A DNA stretch of 64,000 nt, from positions 1,867,501 through 1,931,500 of the forward strand of contig NZ_AP019810.1 of the NCBI RefSeq assembly GCF_013394305.1, in the 5' to 3' direction. A program made the position numbers and the translations under genes. Within the stretch, counting starts at the first letter, position 1; every line of letters starts with the position of its first letter. This DNA is from Enterococcus mundtii. GTDB taxonomy: Bacteria > Bacillota > Bacilli > Lactobacillales > Enterococcaceae. The notes below the pieces were generated by a model. That model was not told the DNA's origin. It saw nothing but the letters and a program-made list of their open reading frames with translations, and did not search any database. Below are positions 15,941 to 48,249 of the stretch, piece after piece.

Positions 15941-17311
15941 TTATTTAGGATAGAATAAGGCATGGGCAATTCCTGGCGCCCAGTTTGTATCACCATAGTT
16001 CAAGTGAGATTGCCAAGTGATATATGTCACACCGTTGTGAACAACTTCTTCACCGGCTGTATAAGAAACCGGTGCGAATAAGCTTCCTACTGTCCATTGA
16101 CGTCCTGGAGTGACTTCACCACCCCCGTCGCCGCCATTGTCATCGCGATCTGTCGTAATAGATAACGCATTGCTTGCATCAGATAGTTCATCCGTATTGC
16201 TGACTGCGCGAACCACGAATGAGTAGGTAGTGTTTGCAGCTAATCCAGACACTTCGTATTCTGTTTCTTTTGTTGAACCAATCAATTGATTGTTACGGTA
16301 GATGTTGTATTGTTTGATTCCTTTTGAATGAGTAGAAGCGCCCCACATCAATGAAACACTTGAACTTGTTTGACCCATCGAGTGTAAGTGAGTTGGTGTA
16401 GTTGGTTTTTCTTGTGTATTTTCTGTTGTAGTTTTTACTGTCAAAGCTGTTTTAGCAGAGACTAAGCCAGTTTGTCCAACTGCTTCGATTTCATAATTAT
16501 AAGATGTATCCGCAGTTAAGTTTGTATCACTGAAATCTGGTGTTGTTGTGTTTCCAAGCAATACGCCATCACGGTAAACGTTGTAAGAGGCTGTATTCGC
16601 TTGGCTGTTCCAAGCTAATTGGACAGTTGAAGAAGTCACATTCGTCGCACGAACGTTTTGTGGTGCTGTTGGTGCTACTGGAATTGCTGAATCACCTTTC
16701 AAGTTGACGTCGACTACTTGATAGAATGCAGCGCCTGTGTCATGGATATCCCAAACAGCTAGAACGACATGGTAACCAAGCCGATCCTTTGGTATATTCA
16801 CTGAATGCGATGGATTAGTCGAAGCTTGTGCCCCGTGATGATCGATAGTTGCTAATAATTCCAAATCGCTACGTTTTAAGGGCTCATTTGGGTTCCAACC
16901 TACTTTAGTAATATAATAATGCCATTTAGTGGTACGGTGAGATTGTGTATAACGCCATCTGAATGTATTCACACCAGTATCTAAGTTTTGTTTTGTCCAC
17001 ATCGTTTCTGTTTGGTTATCTAGTAAGAAGCTTCCTCCAACTGCACCATTTGCAGAAGCGATGCGTCCGTCAGCAGGGCCAGCTGCTGGGAAGCCTTTAG
17101 CAGTTTCTAATGATTGTGGTTCATAAATCACTGGACCATATTTTGCTGCTGCAGCGGATAAATTAACATTACGGTCTAAGTGTCCTTGATACGCACGACT
17201 GATCGGTGATTCGACATAACCGTGAGCAGAAGCGTCTTGTTCCCCAATCGTTAAGCTTGCTCCAAATAAAATCCCCGAGCATAAAACTGTACCAAAAATT
17301 TGTTTTTTCAT
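15941..17311 (-). CDS. Secreted AA10 lytic polysaccharide monooxygenase with FnIII and chitin-binding module (copy B)
   Basis: A 456-residue paralogue of the adjacent LPMO with the same architecture: signal peptide to ASA, His1 in HGYVESPISRAYQ, an AA10 catalytic domain, two FnIII-like repeats, a shorter Asp/Gly linker and the C-terminal CBM5/12-type module ending in WAPGIAHALFYPK. The start at 17311 has TTTCCTCC on the opposite strand (GGAGGAAA) immediately upstream; the ATG at 17323 lies before that site. Compared with copy A the linker is about 10 residues shorter and the catalytic domain has several substitutions around LLDNQTETMW and GAAFYQV. It is probably the product of tandem duplication, possibly with divergent substrate preference. 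Confidence 0.95.
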   Translation of the reverse strand: MKKQIFGTVLCSGILFGASLTIGEQDASAHGYVESPISRAYQGHLDRNVNLSAAAAKYGPVIYEPQSLETAKGFPAAGPADGRIASANGAVGGSFLLDNQTETMWTKQNLDTGVNTFRWRYTQSHRTTKWHYYITKVGWNPNEPLKRSDLELLATIDHHGAQASTNPSHSVNIPKDRLGYHVVLAVWDIHDTGAAFYQVVDVNLKGDSAIPVAPTAPQNVRATNVTSSTVQLAWNSQANTASYNVYRDGVLLGNTTTPDFSDTNLTADTSYNYEIEAVGQTGLVSAKTALTVKTTTENTQEKPTTPTHLHSMGQTSSSVSLMWGASTHSKGIKQYNIYRNNQLIGSTKETEYEVSGLAANTTYSFVVRAVSNTDELSDASNALSITTDRDDNGGDGGGEVTPGRQWTVGSLFAPVSYTAGEEVVHNGVTYITWQSHLNYGDTNWAPGIAHALFYPK

Positions 17312-17432
17312 TTTTTCCTCCATATGTAAATAAGATTTAGATAACGAATAATAAAAAACGAATTTCGTAATTATCTCTCTTTTGTGTTATCTGGGATTAA
17401 GATTATCAAATAAAATGAATAGTTACGAATCA

Positions 17433-17456
17433 GTTTATACCGATGTGTAGGTAAAA
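17433..17456 (-). promoter_or_regulatory. Element conserved upstream of both LPMO genes (copy B)
   Basis: GTTTATACCGA-TGTG-TAGGTAAAA, matching 15294-15317 at 20 of 24 positions, at a similar distance from the start codon. The surrounding 120 bp also share shorter blocks (for example TTAGATAAC and GTTATCTG), which suggests the promoter was duplicated with the gene. Confidence 0.5.
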
Positions 17457-17768
17457 AAATGATAGAAACATAAATAGTATGATTTGTTATAACGTTGATT
17501 TTTTAAGGATGTAGGTACCATATTTGGAAAATGAGAACATTTTTTTATAAAAAAATATTTCTTGGGATTAAGAATTGAATGATTTTGTTCAGATTCTATT
17601 TTAGTTATCTTAAAATAAAAGAAGTGAAATTATATAAAACGTAAATGAGGTAGTAGCAGAAGGGTGACAGATTCGATTGGTGATAAGGGAAGTAACAAAA
17701 ATATCTAATTGCTGAGCTGTATGAGAAGAAGAACTGCTACGATTAAATAGAAAAAAGTGAAGAAATGA

Positions 17769-17797
17769 TTGACAAAAAGAAATAGATTTGGTATGAT
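17769..17797 (+). promoter_or_regulatory. Promoter of the infC-rpmI-rplT operon
   Basis: TTGACA (17769-17774), a 17-bp spacer, then TATGAT (17792-17797). It is a strong sigma-A promoter about 185 bp upstream of infC, leaving room for a regulatory leader. The 310 bp between LPMO B's upstream element and this promoter show nothing I can name. Confidence 0.85.
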
Positions 17798-17820
17798 AAT
17801 TAAGTTGAGAAATAAAAGCA

Positions 17821-17932
17821 GAAGCACCCGCTTCTCGCCTTAGTTGATACAGTCACTGGGCTAGATAGTTTTCATCTATATGTAGTATAGGTGGAGTACG
17901 TGCGGGTTCTATCAAAAGAACTCGTTTTTTTA
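17821..17932 (+). promoter_or_regulatory. infC leader RNA with attenuator (L20-type autoregulation)
   Basis: The leader contains ACCCGC (17826-17831), which can pair with GCGGGT (17902-17907). The same GGGT segment is part of a terminator stem CGGGTTCT (17903-17910) and AGAACTCG (17917-17924), followed by seven T residues. Mutually exclusive pairings of this kind are the expected design of the Firmicutes infC-rpmI-rplT leader, where ribosomal protein L20 represses its operon. The pairings are seen; the L20 ligand comes from family knowledge. Confidence 0.75.
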
Positions 17933-17982
17933 TTGCCGTTCATTCGGTAAGCTTTTCTTTCTCTCATAATATTTGGAGGTGA

Positions 17983-18507
17983 ATGACCATAGCAAAGGAT
18001 ATGATGGTTAACGACGGCATTCGTGCACGTGAATTACGATTGATCGGTTCAGATGGTGAGCAATTAGGAGTTAAGTCAAAAGCAGAAGCATTGCAAATTG
18101 CAGAACAATCAAACTTGGATCTTGTGTTAGTTGCTCCAGGTGCGAAACCACCAGTAGCGCGAATCATGGACTACGGAAAATACCGTTTCGAGCAACAAAA
18201 GAAAGACCGCGAAGCGCGTAAAAAACAAAAAGTGATCAATGTAAAAGAAGTTCGTTTAAGTCCAACGATTGATTTGAATGACTTCAATACAAAACTTCGT
18301 AATGCACGTAAGTTCTTAGAGAAAGGCGATAAAGTGAAAGCTTCTATCCGTTTCAAAGGCCGTGCCATTACCCACAAAGAAATTGGTCAAAAAGTCTTGG
18401 ATCGCTTAGCTGAAGAAACTGCTGATATTGCAACAGTGGAACAAAAAGCGAAAATGGACGGACGCAGCATGTTCTTGACGCTGGCACCGAAAAACGACAG
18501 TAAGTAA
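17983..18507 (+). CDS. infC: Translation initiation factor IF-3
   Basis: A 174-residue IF-3, which binds the 30S subunit and enforces start-codon and initiator tRNA fidelity. The N-terminal domain ([15 protein letters not shown], then [20 protein letters not shown]) and the C-terminal domain ([30 protein letters not shown]) are full length. An ATTTGGAGGTG site precedes the ATG. It is the first gene of the conserved operon with rpmI and rplT, under the leader attenuator. Confidence 0.98.
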
Positions 18508-18578
18508 TTTGAATGACTAACTGATTGTTGGACAGTCAATAGTCGGATAACGAAAGATTTTGAGGAGGAAATATAGTC

Positions 18579-18779
18579 ATGCCAAAACAAAAAACACACC
18601 GCGGATCAGCAAAACGTTTCAAACGTACTGGTAAAGGCGGATTGAAACGCTTCCGTGCGTTTACAAGTCACCGTTTCCACGGCAAAACTAAAAAACAACG
18701 CCGTCAATTACGTAAAGCGCGCATGGTTTCTAGTGGCGATTTCAAACGTATTCGTCAACAACTAGCAAAAATGAAATAA
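18579..18779 (+). CDS. rpmI: 50S ribosomal protein L35
   Basis: A 66-residue basic ribosomal protein with the canonical start [20 protein letters not shown] and the internal [17 protein letters not shown]. It has a GAGGAGG site 8 bp before the ATG. It stands between infC and rplT, as in nearly all Firmicutes, and is full length. Confidence 0.98.
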
Positions 18780-18832
18780 GAACGTAAAATAATTGAAATT
18801 TAAAGATTTATTTTTATTAGGAGGAATTATAC

Positions 18833-19192
18833 ATGGCACGTGTAAAAGGTGGAACAGTAACTCGTAAACGTCGCAAAAAAATGCTGAAATTAGCAAAAGG
18901 TTACTACGGTTCAAAACACACTTTATTTAAAACAGCAAAAGAACAAGTAATGAATTCATACAACTACGCATATCGCGATCGTCGTCAAAAGAAACGCGAC
19001 TTCCGCAAATTGTGGATCGCTCGTATCAACGCAGCGGCTCGTATGAATGGCTTAAGCTACTCAAAATTGATGCACGGTTTGAAATTAGCTGAAATCGACA
19101 TCAACCGCAAAATGTTAGCTGACTTGGCTGTCCATGATGCAGCAGCATTTACTGCATTAGCTGACCAAGCAAAAGATGCTTTAGCTAAATAA
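18833..19192 (+). CDS. rplT: 50S ribosomal protein L20
   Basis: A 119-residue ribosomal protein, complete, with [20 protein letters not shown] at the N-terminus and [19 protein letters not shown] in the middle. It is needed for early 50S assembly and, in Firmicutes, represses its own operon through the infC leader. AGGAGG lies 8 bp upstream. A strong terminator follows 15 bp after the stop. Confidence 0.98.
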
Positions 19193-19207
19193 GCGCTAGA
19201 ATAGCTA

Positions 19208-19239
19208 AACACATCCAGGTTTTCTGGATGTGTTTTTTT
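19208..19239 (+). terminator. Terminator of the infC-rpmI-rplT operon
   Basis: 11-bp stem AACACATCCAG (19208-19218) and CTGGATGTGTT (19224-19234), then a T-run. The 300 bp that follow, up to the next gene, contain only the palindrome noted separately. Confidence 0.95.
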
Positions 19240-19507
19240 ATATCTAACAAACTTCAATAAAATTTCTGTTATGTACAAATAAATTGAAATAACCAAATAG
19301 ATAAAGTACATGATATTTTTTTGAAAAGAAAGGTGACCATAGCTCATTTTTTGTCTTAGATAATGAATCTTTGTATATAGTTATCTGACTGAAATATTTT
19401 TTCAAAAAACATTTCAGTAGCTCGTAATGAATCTTTTTTAATCATATGTACTTATTCTGTCGTTGATATTTAATGAGAGCGGTTTCTTTATAGGGTAAAA
19501 TGAAGCA

Positions 19508-19521
19508 ACTGATATATCAGT
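19508..19521 (+). promoter_or_regulatory. Perfect 14-bp palindrome upstream of the permease-hydantoinase operon
   Basis: ACTGATATATCAGT is a perfect inverted repeat ending 26 bp before the permease ATG, where a repressor would overlap the transcription start. It is a candidate operator for the GntR/FCD regulator at 23740-24414, whose own upstream region has a similar half-site (ACTGGATATA on the minus strand). A weak cre-like sequence lies at 19473-19487 (two mismatches to consensus). Confidence 0.4.
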
Positions 19522-19547
19522 GGGATGAAATAGAATGGAGTGAGTCT

Positions 19548-20885
19548 ATGAGCGAAATGATTATTGGCATGTTGTTGATTTTGTCGTTCTTTTTTATGGT
19601 TTGGTATTGTGTCAAAGGACTTAATTTGATGGTTGGTTTAGCGATCATGGCGACGATTTGGATGGGATTGGCGCTGATTGGTAATTTTTTCTCACCGAAT
19701 GCCGCAATGGAAGGACAGTCAGTCATTGATGTGTTGACCCATGTATATGCTACTGGTCCAGCGGAATATGCGAAATCGATTTTAGTGAATGTATTCTTTG
19801 GTGCTTTTTTTGGTCGAGTATTGGTAGATAGTGGGATAGCGGCTACATTGATTCGAAAAGTCGTAGAGCTTGGCGGTGATAAACCGCGGATCACGATGAG
19901 CCTTTTATGTCTTGTAACGTCAATTATTTTTATGTCGATGACCGGGATCGGCCCAGTGATTTCAATTGCCGTGATCGTTTTACCGATTTTGATGTCGTTA
20001 GGAATTGCTGCACCTGTTGCTCTATTTGCATTCATGGGTTCGATTATGGCAGGGATCTTTGCAAATATTGTCAATTTCAAGCAATACCAAACGATCTATG
20101 CAGGGTTTAATTCTGCGGCTGAAAATTATACATACAATGATTACTTTCAAATCGGAATGATTGGCATGATCGTAAGTTTAGTAATCGTTTTGCTTGTAGC
20201 TAATATATCAATGAACACGAAGAAACGCTATGCAATGGCAGCTGAACTTCCACGAGAAGGTGGGGAAGCGCCAATGATTTCTTGGTTGGCAGTCGTTATT
20301 CCTGTGTTGGGAGTGGTGTTATTAGAAATTCCGATTATTCTTGGTTTCATGTTGGCAGGGATCTGGGCGTTGCTATTTACTGGGAAATTACGTGGTGGAT
20401 ACAAGGAGATCTGTCGGCAATTCGCTAAATTATTTACAGATGGAGCAACAGATGTAGCACCGATGGTTGGCTTTTTGATGACTTTAGCGATGTTCAATAA
20501 TTCGGCGGTATATGCTTCTTCTTATTTCTCTGCGATTTTGGGAGACTTTATTCCCCAGACACCTTTTGTGTTGGCACTTGCCTTTGCATTGTTGACGCCT
20601 CTAGGTTTTTTCCGTGGTCCGTTGAGTCTAGTCGGTTCGGGATCAGCGATTTTAGCAGTAGTTTTAGCAGTCAATCCGACAATGCCTGTGGCCTTCTTAT
20701 TTCCGTTATTTGCGACGACGACCATTGCGCCACAGCATTTAGATATCACTCAATCCTGGATTGCATGGGGATTAGGGTATACAAAGGTTTCCTCTCGTGA
20801 ATTCATGAAAAAATCGATTCCGACAGGGTGGGCGATCGGTGTGATCGTCTGTATCTTGACGTTGATCCTTTATGGTAATTTTTGA
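19548..20885 (+). CDS. Multi-TM permease (GntP/citrate-transporter-like)
   Basis: A 445-residue integral membrane protein with about 11-12 hydrophobic helices. The glycine-rich segment SMTGIGPVISIAVIVLPILM and the later TDGATDVAPMVGFLMTLAMF resemble the ion transporter superfamily (GntP/CitMHS type), but I cannot name the substrate. The ATG at 19548 is favoured by TGGAG 7 bp upstream; the frame is open to 19500, but that extension is polar and lacks a ribosome binding site. The hydantoinase-like gene starts 35 bp downstream, so it probably imports that enzyme's substrate, perhaps a small amide or cyclic imide. Confidence 0.75.
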   Translation: MSEMIIGMLLILSFFFMVWYCVKGLNLMVGLAIMATIWMGLALIGNFFSPNAAMEGQSVIDVLTHVYATGPAEYAKSILVNVFFGAFFGRVLVDSGIAATLIRKVVELGGDKPRITMSLLCLVTSIIFMSMTGIGPVISIAVIVLPILMSLGIAAPVALFAFMGSIMAGIFANIVNFKQYQTIYAGFNSAAENYTYNDYFQIGMIGMIVSLVIVLLVANISMNTKKRYAMAAELPREGGEAPMISWLAVVIPVLGVVLLEIPIILGFMLAGIWALLFTGKLRGGYKEICRQFAKLFTDGATDVAPMVGFLMTLAMFNNSAVYASSYFSAILGDFIPQTPFVLALAFALLTPLGFFRGPLSLVGSGSAILAVVLAVNPTMPVAFLFPLFATTTIAPQHLDITQSWIAWGLGYTKVSSREFMKKSIPTGWAIGVIVCILTLILYGNF

Positions 20886-44069: not shown

Positions 44070-44549
44070 ATGAATATAAAAATCATCTCAGTAGGAAAAT
44101 TAAAAGAGAAATATCTGATTCAAGGAAGCAATGAGTACGTTAAGCGACTTAAAGCCTACGGGAAAATCGAACTAATAGAAGTACCTGACGAAAAAGCACC
44201 AGAAAATCTTAGCGAAGCTCAAATGCGCCAAGTCAAAGAAAAAGAAGGCGAGCGTATACTCGCAAAAATCAAAGATCATGAATTTGTCTACGCTTTAGCG
44301 ATCCAAGGCGAAAATCCTACTAGTGAAGCCTTTGCAAAGCAAATTGATCAATTAGGTATCCAAGGAAAAAGCCAGCTCGTCTTTGTCATCGGTGGCTCGT
44401 TAGGATTAAGCGATGACGTCATGCAACGCAGCAATGCCCAAATCTCTTTCGGCAAAATGACCTACCCCCATCAACTGATGCGCCTGATCCTCGTTGAACA
44501 AATTTATCGCGCATTTCGGATCAATACTGGGGCTCCGTACCACAAATGA
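44070..44549 (+). CDS. rlmH: 23S rRNA pseudouridine-1915 N3-methyltransferase RlmH
   Basis: A 159-residue SPOUT-class methyltransferase modifying pseudouridine 1915 in helix 69 of 23S rRNA. Characteristic segments are the N-terminal [13 protein letters not shown], the knot region [15 protein letters not shown] and the invariant C-terminus GAPYHK. It is full length. AGGAAAGG lies upstream of the ATG. The 3' end of rlmH is the integration site of SCC elements in staphylococci; here a type VII secretion effector module starts immediately downstream. A terminator follows the stop. Confidence 0.97.
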
Positions 44550-44779: not shown

Positions 44780-44914
44780 ATGAAAATAATTCAGAAAAAA
44801 TTCGTATTTAGTTTAAGAAGACCAGTATCTAAAGAGCAAAGCTATCGTTTAGGAAAAAGAATGTTGCAAGAAATCAACCATCAAATATCTAAGAAGGTGA
44901 ACGAATGTCAATAG
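44780..44914 (+). pseudogene. Possible remnant ORF upstream of the LXG module
   Basis: A 44-codon frame beginning MKIIQKKFVFSLRRPVSKEQ and ending KVNECQ, without a ribosome binding site, overlapping the start of the DUF3958-like gene by 10 bp. LXG modules normally have a WXG100-like DUF3130/TIGR04197 gene here. This stretch may be the tail of such a gene after decay, but the sequence is too short to assign. It is listed because the position is informative. Confidence 0.25.
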
Positions 44915-45300
44915 ACAATGAAATGATCTATGAGAATCAAAAAGAAATTTGGAAAGTGGAACAGCAACAAGACGAATTAGTAAATGGGAAACGTAGGTTA
45001 GAAAACCAGCTCCTTCAATTAGAAAAAGAACTTCAAAGAGGTTTTCGCCAATTATCTGAATTGAATCATGAAGATATCCAACAAGGTATGACCAATGCAA
45101 TTTGGATGCAGAAGGAGTATGAAGCAAAGCAACAAACATTTCAACAACAATTTCATCAGGCACATGAAGAACTTGATTTTTCGTACAGGAAAACTTTACA
45201 AGGATTAGAAGTAGAAAGAGAAGAGTTGTTTGCAGAAAGGATAACATTTGAGTGGGGAATCATCAGAATTTATGTCAGCGTTAAAGAAGAACTTAGCTAG
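44905..45300 (+). CDS. Alpha-helical LXG partner protein, DUF3958-like
   Basis: A 131-residue, almost wholly helical protein (long coiled coil with QQQDELVNGKRRLENQLLQL and KELQRGFRQLSELNHED), preceded by AAGAAGGTGA. Size, composition and its place directly before an LXG gene fit the DUF3958 (Lap2) helper family, which binds the LXG domain and targets the toxin to the type VIIb secretion machine. The last 17 codons overlap the LXG gene start by 53 bp. The DUF3958 assignment rests on these features, not on a search. Confidence 0.7.
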   Translation: MSIDNEMIYENQKEIWKVEQQQDELVNGKRRLENQLLQLEKELQRGFRQLSELNHEDIQQGMTNAIWMQKEYEAKQQTFQQQFHQAHEELDFSYRKTLQGLEVEREELFAERITFEWGIIRIYVSVKEELS

Positions 45301-46537
45301 TAGTAAAGAAACGATCAATCAACTAAAGAGAGGAAGTCAAAAAGTCGTGTCAGCTGTTAACGGAAACGAATTATCTGGTGCAGCATATGCAGCAGGAAAA
45401 GGATTATTTAGTAAATTGATCATTCCGACAATTACACGAACAACGAATGCGATTGAAAAAATTGAACAGGAGCTACAAAGGTATAAAGTCTCGGATCAGA
45501 TTGTAGCAATGGAAGGATACTTGGATGAGAACAAACTGAACCAGCAACTGGCGACGACGCGAGTTATGAAAGCATCAGTAGACACGACTTCTGCTTTTGT
45601 TCAGTCCAAAGCACAAAGTAATCCGTTCGTCGGCATTCTCGAAACATTGCTAAATGTCCAACGATATCTAGAACGTATGTCAGAGAGCTTTCAACAAGAT
45701 ATTGATCAATTACAAAATAAGCTAAAAAAATTACATAATTTCAATTCTCAAACTAGTGGATTATTCAGTCATAGTTTGGATGAATTGAAACTGGCAATGC
45801 AGGGTGTATTAGTGTTAAAGAATACGAGAGTGAGGACAGATGGTTCATATTTGTTACCCGAGGGGATAAATAAAAAGTGGTTTACTGAGGTTGGAACTGA
45901 TAATAAGGTGAAGCAAATATTGGAGAAATTGACTGAGAAGATAGACTATGCCCATTCTATAGGGAACACTACATTAAGTGTCATCAAAGAATATGGTAAA
46001 GCAACTAAAGTAAAAGCAATAAGACTTGGGTCTAAGTCAGTTTCTAGTTATTCGTTCTCTCGTACAACTAGGTACGCTAAAACATTAGAGAGTGTTAGTG
46101 ATGATTTATTAGATTCAGTGGAAATTGTAAGAAGTAATAATATGTGGAAAGGTATAGGGATTGCTGGTACGATTGCAGGTATAGCTTTTGATTATGATAC
46201 TCAAATGAGTAAATATAATGATATTGAAAGAGCAACTAGAAATACAGTTGCATATACGATAATAGATGCTAGTGGCAAAGTTATGGGGGCTTATATTGGG
46301 GGCATTCTTGGAACCTTGATACCAATACCTGGTGCAGGATCCGTACTAGGCGCAGTTATTGGAGCTGGTATTGGGAGTTTTGGAGAGCATGTATATGATT
46401 GGATTGAAACGGGGAAAGCTAAAAAAGCTTTTGATAATATTGGAAAAACTATTTCTTTAGGAATAAACAGTTTGAAAAACGATGTTGGTAAAGTCTTTGC
46501 CGGTTTTGGGCAATCATTAGGGAGTATATTCGGATGA
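45248..46537 (+). CDS. LXG-domain type VIIb secretion toxin with glycine-zipper C-terminal domain
   Basis: A 429-residue polymorphic toxin. Residues 1-210 form the helical LXG targeting domain: SALKKNLASSKETINQLKRG, NELSGAAYAAGKGLFSKLII and ENKLNQQLATTRVMKASVDT are strongly typical. The TTG start at 45248 has AAAGGA 6 bp upstream; the ATG at 45272 would remove the conserved N-terminus. After a variable region (220-300), the C-terminus is hydrophobic and Gly-rich: KGIGIAGTIAGIAF at 301-314 and a GxxxG-repeat stretch at 343-378 (GAYIGGILGT, then LGAVIGAGIG). This suggests a membrane-inserting, pore-forming effector, as described for glycine-zipper LXG toxins of streptococci and the membrane toxin TspA of staphylococci. 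It overlaps the next gene by 4 bp. Confidence 0.88.
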   Translation: MSGESSEFMSALKKNLASSKETINQLKRGSQKVVSAVNGNELSGAAYAAGKGLFSKLIIPTITRTTNAIEKIEQELQRYKVSDQIVAMEGYLDENKLNQQLATTRVMKASVDTTSAFVQSKAQSNPFVGILETLLNVQRYLERMSESFQQDIDQLQNKLKKLHNFNSQTSGLFSHSLDELKLAMQGVLVLKNTRVRTDGSYLLPEGINKKWFTEVGTDNKVKQILEKLTEKIDYAHSIGNTTLSVIKEYGKATKVKAIRLGSKSVSSYSFSRTTRYAKTLESVSDDLLDSVEIVRSNNMWKGIGIAGTIAGIAFDYDTQMSKYNDIERATRNTVAYTIIDASGKVMGAYIGGILGTLIPIPGAGSVLGAVIGAGIGSFGEHVYDWIETGKAKKAFDNIGKTISLGINSLKNDVGKVFAGFGQSLGSIFG

Positions 46538-47127
46538 AAAAGAAGATTATTCCACTTTTGAAAATATCAGGAAATTCATCAATATATTTTGATTTTGAAA
46601 AGAGCACTCCATATGTACAACATTTTAAAGGGGCTTATACGGAAACAGCAGGAAAAAGCTACTCTAAAAGTAGAACTTTTTGGACAAGTCAAGTTCTTAT
46701 GGTAGGAATGGTGACGTTTGGAACCATTTTAGATAGATTACTTATTTTTCCAGCTTTAGTTAGTTTACTTCTTGTGTGGTGTCTAGGATATGTGTTAGCA
46801 CACGTTTTTATAGGAATAATGATAACTAATTCATTGGGAGAAAAAGAATATAGAAATTTTTCTCCCAATGAAATTCAAGGAGTTGTATCTAACTCACCAA
46901 AGTTTTGGATATTGTTGTTTGTCGAGTTTTTATTGACTATAGGAATACTCTTTGTTTCTATTATTTCGATTTTTAATCATATGCTAAAAGGTGAAGATTT
47001 TATAGAACTTTTATTTGGTGTGTTTAGTTTAGCAAGTTTAAGAAAAATAGTACCGCCTATTTTAGGAATTAAAGCAGGGGGAATACTAAAAAAACAAATA
47101 AAGGAAGGAAAATTTCATAATCAATAA
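46534..47127 (+). CDS. Membrane protein, candidate immunity protein 1
   Basis: A 197-residue protein with four predicted membrane helices (about 51-67, 71-96, 124-147 and 155-170). The start ATGA overlaps the stop of the LXG toxin gene, the tightest possible coupling and usual for toxin-immunity pairs. A membrane immunity protein matches a toxin with a membrane-inserting domain. The N-terminal soluble part (LKISGNSSIYFDFEKSTPYV) may be distantly related to the second membrane protein of this locus. I do not recognise a named family. Confidence 0.6.
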   Translation: MKKKIIPLLKISGNSSIYFDFEKSTPYVQHFKGAYTETAGKSYSKSRTFWTSQVLMVGMVTFGTILDRLLIFPALVSLLLVWCLGYVLAHVFIGIMITNSLGEKEYRNFSPNEIQGVVSNSPKFWILLFVEFLLTIGILFVSIISIFNHMLKGEDFIELLFGVFSLASLRKIVPPILGIKAGGILKKQIKEGKFHNQ

Positions 47128-47455
47128 ACATATTTTACCATTAGGAAGTGTAGTGCGATTAAAAGGCGGAGATATCAAACTTATTATTGTTGGACGGGCA
47201 CAGCTTTTTAATAATGAAGGAGCGATTGGTTATTTTGACTATTCTGCTTTAGGTTATCCGCAAGGTGTAATAGCGGAATCCAATTTTGCATTTTTTAATG
47301 ATAAAGATATAAAGAAAGTCTTATTTGAAGGATATCGAGATGAGCAAGAAGTAGCGTTTGCTGATTCTTACGAAGAAAACATAAAAAACATACCTTATCC
47401 TAAATTAGTGATTGAAAGAGAGATTGAAGAGGAACCAGAAACTTTTGGGTTTTAA
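47117..47455 (+). CDS. DUF4176 family protein with apparent ATA start
   Basis: DUF4176 proteins are small partners of type VIIb LXG loci and begin near the motif ILPLGSVVxLKGG. Here that motif is present in frame (KHILPLGSVVRLKGGDIKLI), but its codons lie upstream of the first standard start, GTG at 47153. The only codon at proper distance (8 bp) from the AAGGAAGG site at 47101-47108 is ATA at 47117, which would give a 112-residue protein. Either AUA is used as a start, or a former ATG has mutated. The rest (AQLFNNEGAIGYFDYSALGY, PQGV) is typical. It overlaps the preceding gene by 11 bp. Confidence 0.65.
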   Translation: MINKHILPLGSVVRLKGGDIKLIIVGRAQLFNNEGAIGYFDYSALGYPQGVIAESNFAFFNDKDIKKVLFEGYRDEQEVAFADSYEENIKNIPYPKLVIEREIEEEPETFGF

Positions 47456-47583
47456 AAATTTAGTTATTAATATGGAATAACAGAAATAAAATACTATAGA
47501 ACTGTTTTGAAACTAATTAAGTAATAGCTTATAGTGCTAAATTTTTCAGAATCAACTGAGAAACTTGAAGGAGGCTTTAGAGG

Positions 47584-48249
47584 ATAGGAAACAACTGTGC
47601 CCAAGAGATTAAAAGAATTAATAGCAGATATTATTTACTGGAATTAAATGATAGATTGTACATTGTTGATTATTTTAAGTTAATGAGGCTGAGAAACTTT
47701 TTTCCGTTTAGTACCTTTTACAACAACGCTCCGAAAGAAAGTTGGACTGCATATAAAGTAACTGGATCAGCAGAAATTTTTGAAGGTAAAAAAACACCTG
47801 AAATACAATTTTATGTTCCTGAATCTTATGGGATTTTCAGTGTTTTTGTAATTAGTCCTTTTCTTATATTTTTGGGCTATCTTGAATCAATATATTTAGC
47901 TCTATTGATTGCTAGTCTTCTTAGTACATATGGAATAATATCAACCTGTCGACTATTACATAACAATAAGAAAGTGAAAGAACTAGTTAAAGATACGACA
48001 ATTGTACAGTTAGTACTTGTTGAAAATAAAAGGTCAAAAATCTATGTTGTTCAGAGTAATTTTTTTTCATGTGTATATGGTATATTTGTAGGCTACCTAT
48101 TTATATCAGCAATTTTATCAGGTGACTTTTGGGAGGTTATTTTTGTTTTGTTAGTATCACCTACAACTTCATTAATATTTGGAAAAATCATATCAAATTT
48201 TAGAGAAGTCCCAGATGTATCTTCTAAATATCAAATTGAAAAAAGATAA
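47584..48249 (+). CDS. DUF443-like membrane protein, candidate immunity protein 2, with apparent ATA start
   Basis: A four-helix membrane protein. The conserved N-terminal part typical of DUF443 (INSRYYLLELNDRLYIVDYF, then RNFFPF) lies in the open frame upstream of the first standard start (TTG 47656). The frame opens at 47581 after a stop codon, and the codon 9 bp after GAAGGAGG (47567-47574) is ATA at 47584, giving 221 residues. DUF443 includes TsaI, the immunity protein to the membrane toxin TspA of Staphylococcus aureus. If AUA is not used, translation would begin within the domain or not at all. The gene lies 128 bp after the DUF4176 gene. Confidence 0.6.
   Translation: MGNNCAQEIKRINSRYYLLELNDRLYIVDYFKLMRLRNFFPFSTFYNNAPKESWTAYKVTGSAEIFEGKKTPEIQFYVPESYGIFSVFVISPFLIFLGYLESIYLALLIASLLSTYGIISTCRLLHNNKKVKELVKDTTIVQLVLVENKRSKIYVVQSNFFSCVYGIFVGYLFISAILSGDFWEVIFVLLVSPTTSLIFGKIISNFREVPDVSSKYQIEKR

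What the first reader, a model, noticed from the sequence alone, without database searches (positions are those of the whole stretch)
44905..48249. Type VIIb LXG effector module with a glycine-zipper membrane domain and membrane immunity candidates
Seen: a helical DUF3958-like partner overlapping an LXG gene, whose C-terminal 130 residues switch to a hydrophobic, GxxxG-rich domain (301-314 and 343-378), followed by a 4-bp-coupled four-helix membrane protein, a DUF4176 gene and a DUF443-like membrane protein. Established: LXG proteins are type VIIb secretion toxins, glycine-zipper LXG effectors permeabilise membranes, and DUF443 includes TsaI, immunity to the membrane toxin TspA. Inference: this is an interbacterial membrane-depolarising toxin with one or two cognate immunity proteins, and the variable region 215-300 may define a new subtype.
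Basis: partly seen in the sequence, partly recalled or inferred. Interest (0 to 1): 0.8.

Follow-up and report, generated by a model that had tools for sequence, protein, structure and literature searches.

The report
Swappable membrane-toxin cassette in Enterococcus
The stretch holds a known sort of weapon that bacteria use against each other, a secreted protein that probably attacks membranes, with its likely antidote, in an enterococcus where parts of the weapon and of its export machine look broken; comparison with relatives shows that the toxin end, one antidote and a helper protein change together as a block.

Summary
The window holds a type VIIb LXG module: helical Lap-type partner, LXG protein with a glycine-rich C-terminus, 4-bp-overlapping membrane protein ("P3"), DUF4176 (Ltc) chaperone frame and a second membrane protein ("P5"). 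The LXG assignment rests on orthology; the window copy scores just under the Pfam cut-off. DUF3958 and DUF443 profiles do not match. Three same-genus genomes keep partner, LXG domain and P5, but toxin C-terminus, membrane immunity and DUF4176 are replaced as one block (window 45887-47475). In three other Enterococcus species a 44%-identical toxin domain sits beside P3 with the same 4-bp overlap; in two of them an unrelated LXG domain precedes it and a 64-65% identical DUF4176 follows. So P3 is the likely cognate immunity, P5 is backbone, and residues 215-300 belong to linker and toxin domain. Over 12 hand-picked loci DUF4176 similarity follows the toxin domain, not the LXG domain. In this genome three of five module genes lack their normal start, and essC and esaA are frameshifted although single frames in three relatives: an EssC locus exists, but export is doubtful. 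Toxicity is untested. New member of a known kind.

The parts
44905..45300 (+). Lap-type helical partner (Lap2/DUF3958-like by position and by similarity to the gene beside essC); its frame now runs past the usual end because of the junction deletion
   Evidence: ORF; 33% identity, E 1e-11 to L009:8818-9168; no DUF3958 profile hit; deletion
45248..46537 (+). LXG effector, 429 codons from a TTG; LXG domain about residues 1-213, toxin domain about 225-429
45248..45256 (.). scar of a 19-bp deletion between two 8-bp direct repeats that removed the usual LXG start and the partner's usual stop
   Evidence: DNA alignment with 4 sequences from three same-genus genomes
45899..46534 (+). C-terminal toxin domain with its linker
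   Evidence: 44% identical domain in 3 other Enterococcus species
46274..46384 (+). two runs of GxxxG separated by a Pro turn (residues 343-379): presumed glycine-zipper hairpin
   Evidence: invariant glycines in 6 of 6 aligned sequences, window included; enrichment
46534..47127 (+). P3, membrane protein with four hydrophobic peaks, probable cognate immunity protein
   Evidence: 4-bp overlap with the toxin here and in 3 of 3 other genomes with a whole toxin domain; copies without a toxin match
47132..47455 (+). DUF4176 (Ltc) chaperone; the listed ORF starts at GTG 47153 but the domain frame begins upstream without a canonical start
   Evidence: 66.1 bits as protein, 86.3 bits in six frames over profile 1-74; similar to solved chain 9dcs_A, E 3.8e-17
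47584..48249 (+).
   Evidence: 92% identity over query residues 2-222, no stops; no DUF443 hit
45887..47475 (+). the exchanged block: toxin C-terminus + P3 + DUF4176
   Evidence: blastn identity to G007, G008 and G012 stops at 45886; it resumes at 47476 in G007 and G012 and at 47139 in G008, where a remnant of this block is left
44070..44549 (+). rlmH, left neighbour; its 3' end is where an SCC-like element lies in G012
   Evidence: SPOUT_MTase 196 bits

Best explanation
A polymorphic type VIIb effector locus. The fixed part is a Lap-type partner, an LXG export domain and a far-end membrane protein (P5). The exchangeable part is a three-gene block: a ~205-residue, probably membrane-acting toxin domain with a double glycine-zipper hairpin, its cognate membrane immunity protein P3, and a DUF4176/Ltc chaperone. 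Inferred mechanism: in the cytoplasm the LXG domain binds the partner, and probably a Lap1-like protein encoded beside essC, to form the export signal, while Ltc holds the toxin domain or linker; after EssC-dependent export the hairpin inserts into a neighbour's cytoplasmic membrane and depolarises it; P3 in the membrane blocks this in kin. Shown here: the homologies, linkage, swap borders and co-inheritance. Inferred: toxicity, depolarisation, P3 as immunity, Lap1 in trans. In the sequenced isolate the locus looks partly degraded (LXG start deleted, two further genes without a canonical start, essC and esaA frameshifted), so it may no longer fire. My probability: about 0.9 that it is an LXG antibacterial effector locus, 0.75 that the toxin is membrane-acting with P3 cognate, 0.65 that export is impaired in this isolate.
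For: LXG part 97% identical to the G007 orthologue and 65% to a paralogue that passes the LXG cut-off. DNA identity to three relatives breaks at 45886 and resumes at 47476 in two of them. Whole toxin-domain homologues in 3 of 105 other Enterococcaceae genomes, each with P3 directly downstream at a 4-bp overlap; P3 occurs without a toxin match in G008, G074 and G078. LXG domains of window and E. caccae are not detectably similar (E 0.43) while toxin domain is 44% and DUF4176 65% identical. DUF4176 similarity against toxin similarity given LXG: partial rho 0.81, 0 of 5000 permutations as high; against LXG given toxin: -0.11, p 0.80 (12 loci). The glycine-zipper LXG toxin EsxX depolarises membranes (PMC12744356, Results and Discussion read) and TelE compromises membrane integrity (PMC10434224, abstract only). 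DUF4176/Ltc as toxin chaperone: PMC13355648, passages. essC is one frame of 1469-1471 codons and esaA one of 1128-1143 codons in three relatives, each split in two in this genome, by gaps seen against all three.
Against: No experiment. The toxin model is of no use (mean pLDDT 36) and the P3 model is weak (54.8). Glycine-rich hydrophobic stretches match unrelated profiles below cut-off, and the class-wide hits other than G000 and G081 are partial, E 3.4e-9 to 9.7e-4 or, in one, 2.0e-9. The window copy misses the LXG cut-off. Only four toxin-P3 pairs with a whole toxin domain are known, and three are from one other genus group. The essC frameshift is one base in a homopolymer and could be a sequencing error; the esaA (4 bp) and LXG (19 bp) changes are less easily explained that way. 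Weak start codons might still work.
Confidence: 0.75

Rival explanations
1. The far-end membrane protein P5, alone or with P3, is the cognate immunity, like TsaI for TspA or the paired ExiC and ExiD for EsxX.
For: P5 lies in the same locus and has several hydrophobic peaks; ExiC and ExiD are needed together and lie apart in the esxX locus. Its N-terminus loosely resembles one DUF443 protein (17 residues, E 0.19).
Against: P5 is 88-100% identical to one orthologue in four genomes whose toxin ends are of two unrelated types; it matches in 4 of 106 family genomes, those with this locus, and in none of the three other species with the toxin domain; no DUF443 profile hit for P5 or two intact orthologues.
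Confidence: 0.12
2. The C-terminal domain is not a membrane depolariser but acts otherwise, for example as an enzyme or a structural helical domain, the GxxxG runs being packing motifs.
For: No confident model, no credible solved relative (one hit at E 0.054), sub-threshold matches to many unrelated profiles.
Against: No enzyme profile over its cut-off; invariant zipper glycines; the linked gene encodes a membrane protein, and EsxX and TspA have membrane immunity proteins too.
Confidence: 0.15
3. The locus is a non-functional relic in this isolate: a decaying copy whose export system is also broken.
For: 19-bp deletion at the LXG start, no canonical start for DUF4176 or P5, essC and esaA split; G012's LXG copy is broken too.
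Against: The toxin-domain and P3 frames are open and undamaged; the LXG domain shows dN/dS of 0.22-0.28 against G008 and G012, although 0.97 on very few changes against G007; a Shine-Dalgarno-like sequence precedes the TTG of the LXG frame (my reading). Parts may be kept for immunity alone.
Confidence: 0.5

Closest known systems
EsxX with ExiAB and ExiCD, Staphylococcus aureus ST398 (PMC12744356)
   Same: LXG domain plus C-terminal glycine zipper, helical Lap partners upstream, membrane immunity that also occurs as orphans
   Different: EsxX uses a membrane pair (DUF5079/DUF5080) and a soluble DUF5085 pair; here one membrane gene is coupled to the toxin and a DUF4176 gene is present; relatedness of the toxin domains was not tested by sequence
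TspA with TsaI (DUF443) and LapT1/LapT2/DUF4176, S. aureus (PMC11322744)
   Same: LXG toxin encoded away from the secretion locus, DUF4176 and Lap partners, membrane immunity
   Different: neither P3 nor P5 matches DUF443; here only one Lap gene was seen in the module; toxin domains were not compared
TelE with TipE, Streptococcus gallolyticus (PMC10434224)
   Same: C-terminal glycine zipper on an LXG effector
   Different: TipE is a DUF5085 protein; no DUF5085 hit in the five proteins here
Ltc (DUF4176) chaperones of LXG toxins (PMC13355648 and the work it cites)
   Same: DUF4176 gene in the toxin operon, strong profile match and similarity to solved chain 9dcs_A
   Different: here natural swaps suggest that it travels with the toxin domain and not with the LXG domain
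OG1RF_11121/11122 and orphan toxins, Enterococcus faecalis (PMC7790226, passages)
   Same: enterococcal LXG toxin with an adjacent immunity gene and orphan modules
   Different: those lie in the T7SS locus; sequence relation to the window toxin was not tested

Membership tests
LXG polymorphic toxins (PF04740) | LXG profile above the curated cut-off | tested here: inconclusive
   21.2 (protein) and 23.9 bits (six frames) against 26.5; intact orthologue L029 scores 26.5; own paralogue 36.6
LXG polymorphic toxins (PF04740) | conserved N-terminal export domain with exchangeable C-terminal toxin and immunity gene | tested here: met
   97% identity before, E 0.07 after residue ~213-218 against G007
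LXG polymorphic toxins (PF04740) | EssC-type secretion system in the genome | tested here: inconclusive
   EssC, EssB, EsaA, EsxA over cut-off, EssA and YukD below; essC and esaA frameshifted
Glycine-zipper LXG toxins (TelE/EsxX type) | extended C-terminal glycine zipper | tested here: met
Glycine-zipper LXG toxins (TelE/EsxX type) | zipper-dependent membrane depolarisation or permeabilisation | not testable with these tools
   needs a growth and voltage-dye assay
DUF4176 / Ltc chaperones (PF13780) | profile above cut-off and position in an LXG operon | tested here: met
   66.1 against 25 bits; 86.3 in six frames
DUF443 / TsaI (PF04276) | profile match | tested here: not met
   no hit at E<=1 for P3, P5, two P3 relatives or two intact P5 orthologues; a DUF443 protein of G083 hits at 74.8 bits
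DUF3958 / Lap2 (PF13125) | profile match | tested here: not met
   no hit for the window protein; the paralogue on L010 11.2 bits, below the 26.3 cut-off; a G083 partner hits at 40.6 bits
DUF3958 / Lap2 (PF13125) | helical protein encoded just upstream of the LXG gene, related to the partner beside essC | tested here: met
   33% identity, E 1e-11; position

The most novel reading that the evidence does not exclude
DUF4176 chaperones are specific for the toxin end, not for the export domain: toxin domain, membrane immunity and DUF4176 form a self-contained transferable block that can be fitted behind unrelated LXG domains, with DUF4176 acting as the cytoplasmic shield of the glycine-zipper domain in the way ExiB does for EsxX, and P3 guarding the membrane from outside.
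Probability: 0.35. Interest if true: 0.6.

Novelty: new member of a known kind. Interest (0 to 1): 0.42.

Why it matters
The module itself is of a kind already described. What is useful is a natural experiment: the same LXG domain with two unrelated toxin blocks, and the same toxin block behind two unrelated LXG domains. It points to the cognate immunity gene (P3), suggests that the DUF4176 chaperone goes with the toxin, and gives two protein families without a Pfam match over cut-off (toxin domain, P3) that can be tested directly. It also warns that the presence of an essC locus does not show that a strain can secrete.

Tried and rejected
DUF443 and DUF3958 labels: tested and not met. A new subtype defined by residues 215-300: rejected; the region belongs to the linker and to a C-terminal domain shared with other species. 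P5 as cognate immunity: judged unlikely. Structure prediction of the toxin domain (pLDDT 36) and of P3 (54.8): too weak for fold searches, so none were run. Solved-structure search: for the toxin-domain profile one hit at E 0.054, for the LXG protein one at E 0.091, neither credible. Plasmid search: 3 of 72,556 records match, over query residues 1-250 or 1-222, at 52.7-56.3% identity; P3 no match. PADLOC: only weak matches, best E 7.5e-5 to LeoA. P3 profile over 398 genomes of the class: strong only in G000 and G081, one weak match (E 8.9e-4) elsewhere. Toxin profile over the same 398: 33 genomes match; G000 and G081 over the whole domain, the other 31 over part of it, not followed. dN/dS of the partner gene is uninformative for want of changes. 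All 12 genome-search runs were used, and the one genome-contig scan. Papers: PMC12478183 and PMC12482557 are not held, so the Ltc work is cited only through PMC13355648. Searches for an earlier description: 'LXG, glycine zipper, type VII secretion, immunity protein', 'Enterococcus, LXG, type VII secretion, immunity' (25 of 34 papers listed), 'LXG, Ltc, chaperone, toxin domain', 'casseliflavus, LXG'. I saw no mention of this toxin-P3 pair in the listings or in the passages read; most listed papers were not opened, and bioRxiv and most subscription journals are not held.

Loci left out of the 12-locus comparison: G012's copy at the rlmH site (broken toxin frame), the second G007 copy at the contig end, LXG modules on L010, L032 (450 aa) and L034 (no DUF4176 seen next to them), E. 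termitis (most of the LXG part missing), the further modules on L032, L033 and L037, and one E. plantarum module (L055:6722-8239) without its own downstream DUF4176. I chose the 12 by inspection and set the domain border by hand for each; the permutation ignores phylogeny.
Full report
What is there. The window lies at G000:C1:1867501-1931500 in a 3.30-Mb genome of four contigs. It looks like an Enterococcus: the three named genomes with the toxin domain are Enterococcus; the species was not determined. Downstream of rlmH lie five + strand genes: a helical partner (44905-45300), an LXG protein (45248-46537), a membrane protein P3 (46534-47127), a DUF4176 protein (listed from 47153) and a membrane protein P5 (listed from 47656).

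Profiles. DUF4176 is clear (66.1 bits, cut-off 25; 86.3 in six frames). LXG is under its cut-off (21.2 bits; 23.9 bits; cut-off 26.5), and WXG100 far under (17 of 44.85). The intact orthologue in G008 scores 26.5, at the cut-off, and an own-genome paralogue with an EndoU nuclease end scores 36.6; the window LXG part is 97% identical to the G007 orthologue and 65% to that paralogue. P3 and P5 match no family over a cut-off. DUF443 does not hit P3, P5, two P3 relatives or two intact P5 orthologues, while a DUF443 protein of G083 in the same run scored 74.8 bits. DUF3958 does not hit gene 1, which is 33% identical to the partner gene beside essC.

Glycine motif. Residues 301-429 hold 9 GxxxG against a mean of 4.2 in 20,000 shuffles (p 0.008) and 5 GxxxGxxxG (p 0.002). 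In an alignment of 6 C-terminal domains, the window's included, the glycines at 347, 351, 355, 364, 368, 372, 376 and 379 and the prolines at 359 and 361 are invariant: two zipper runs with a turn between. An AlphaFold model is all-helical but useless in confidence (pLDDT 36).

The swap. In 16 genomes of the genus (one per species), 4 including the window's have the LXG domain. In G007, G008 and G012 the locus has the same partner, LXG domain and P5, but a different glycine-rich toxin end, other membrane proteins and another DUF4176 (G012's LXG frame is broken). DNA identity of 94-96% stops at window 45886; it resumes at 47476, just after the DUF4176 stop, in G007 and G012, and at 47139 in G008. 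G008 keeps a remnant of the window-type P3 (75% identity over residues 36-106, with a stop; DNA 91% over 198 bp) and a second, 31% identical P3-family gene. The window genome has no match to the A1 membrane protein that follows the other toxin type. So these genomes carry alternative toxin-immunity blocks at one site.

Across species. Of 106 Enterococcaceae genomes, the window's included, 6 match the toxin domain and 7 match P3. Four have the whole domain: the window's and three that are E. caccae, E. plantarum and E. termitis by matching contig lengths. All four have P3 next to it with the same 4-bp overlap. The other two, G075 and G083, share only the zipper half and have another membrane gene. 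G008, G074 and G078 have P3 without a toxin match: orphan immunity. E. caccae's LXG domain is not detectably similar to the window's (E 0.43), yet toxin domain (44%) and DUF4176 (65%) are. E. termitis lacks most of the LXG part, and no DUF4176 was seen directly after its P3.

Chaperone follows toxin. For 12 loci that I had read, similarity matrices of LXG domain, toxin end and DUF4176 were compared: partial rank correlation DUF4176-toxin given LXG 0.81 (0 of 5000 permutations as high), DUF4176-LXG given toxin -0.11 (p 0.80); with 8 loci, after dropping close copies, 0.80 and -0.18. The loci were picked by hand, those left out are listed under Tried and rejected, and the permutation ignores phylogeny. 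Published work says that Ltc (DUF4176) binds a disordered region of a subset of LXG toxins and stays in the cytoplasm (PMC13355648, passages); the co-inheritance fits that and suggests which side it reads.

P5. It matches in 4 of 106 family genomes, those with this locus, at 88-100% identity to the G007 query, whatever the toxin type. It is therefore part of the backbone; its role is open.

State in this isolate. A 19-bp deletion between two 8-bp direct repeats removed the usual LXG start and the partner's stop; the LXG frame now starts at a TTG with, by my reading, a Shine-Dalgarno-like sequence before it. The DUF4176 frame is open 17 codons upstream of its GTG and the P5 frame 25 codons upstream of its TTG, with no ATG, GTG or TTG in either. 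Intact P5 and LXG copies exist in relatives. In the T7SS locus, essC and esaA are each split in two ORFs while three relatives have single frames. Against all three relatives the window genome lacks one base in a homopolymer in essC and four bases in esaA; against G007 alone there are two more small gaps near the esaA break, and in-frame 3-base differences against G008 and G012. EsaA, EssB, EssC and EsxA pass their profile cut-offs, EssA (21.3 of 32.45 bits) and YukD/EsaB (23.2 of 27) do not. EssC and EsaA are core components, and loss of a core component can abolish activity in S. aureus (PMC8675928, passage). The homopolymer gap could be an assembly error. A Lap1-like 84-residue gene (named by position and size; no profile hit over a cut-off) sits beside essC and was not seen among the ORFs of the rlmH-site modules; that it serves the window toxin in trans is inference, by analogy with TspA (PMC11322744, passages).

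Verdict. An ordinary kind of system, characterised elsewhere: a glycine-zipper LXG effector module with one probable cognate immunity gene, probably decaying in this isolate. The new part is a pair of protein families without a Pfam match over cut-off, and evidence for a toxin-immunity-chaperone block that moves between LXG domains.

Noticed in passing
L099:10590-16716 (G012:C1) and L100 (G007): In G012 about 22.8 kb lies between the 3' end of rlmH and the LXG locus, with CcrA-, CcrB- and Cch-like genes (best hits, below equivalog cut-offs) and HsdM and HsdS genes (L030); in G007 about 8.7 kb lies there. Enterococcal ccrAB elements are in print (PMC3068701, PMC6222049, seen as search listing). 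In the window rlmH is followed directly by the LXG locus.
   Followed up: partly
L009:9842-14253 and 16197-19579 (G000:C1 T7SS locus): essC and esaA each split into two frames in the window's genome, single frames in three relatives.
   Followed up: yes
L009:7307-8827: LXG-type effector at the T7SS locus, also with a glycine-rich end, a 301-residue membrane protein and DUF4176; no Pfam hit at E 0.1, but 51% identical to the window's LXG part.
   Followed up: partly
L010:5253-6662: Third LXG effector with a bacterial EndoU nuclease end (58.9 bits); none of the genome's three DUF4176 matches lies near it.
   Followed up: partly
L054, L055, L057, L058: Islands of many small membrane genes, among them P3-type and, in some, A1-type relatives, partly in genomes without the toxin: likely orphan-immunity islands.
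   Followed up: partly
L010:3304-3702: A 210-residue protein of relatives (L034:1779-2411) is shortened to 132 residues in the window's genome.
   Followed up: no
plasmids LR962679.1, LR962653.1, AP025691.1: Stretches 53-56% identical to the window's LXG part lie on Enterococcus plasmids; the match ends at query residue 222-250.
   Followed up: no
L030:4943-5758: G012's LXG gene is itself broken by a stop and a frame change.
   Followed up: no
L028 and L031 (G007:C1 both ends): The same locus appears near both ends of one contig, the second copy with more broken frames: probably an assembly overlap at the circle's join.
   Followed up: no
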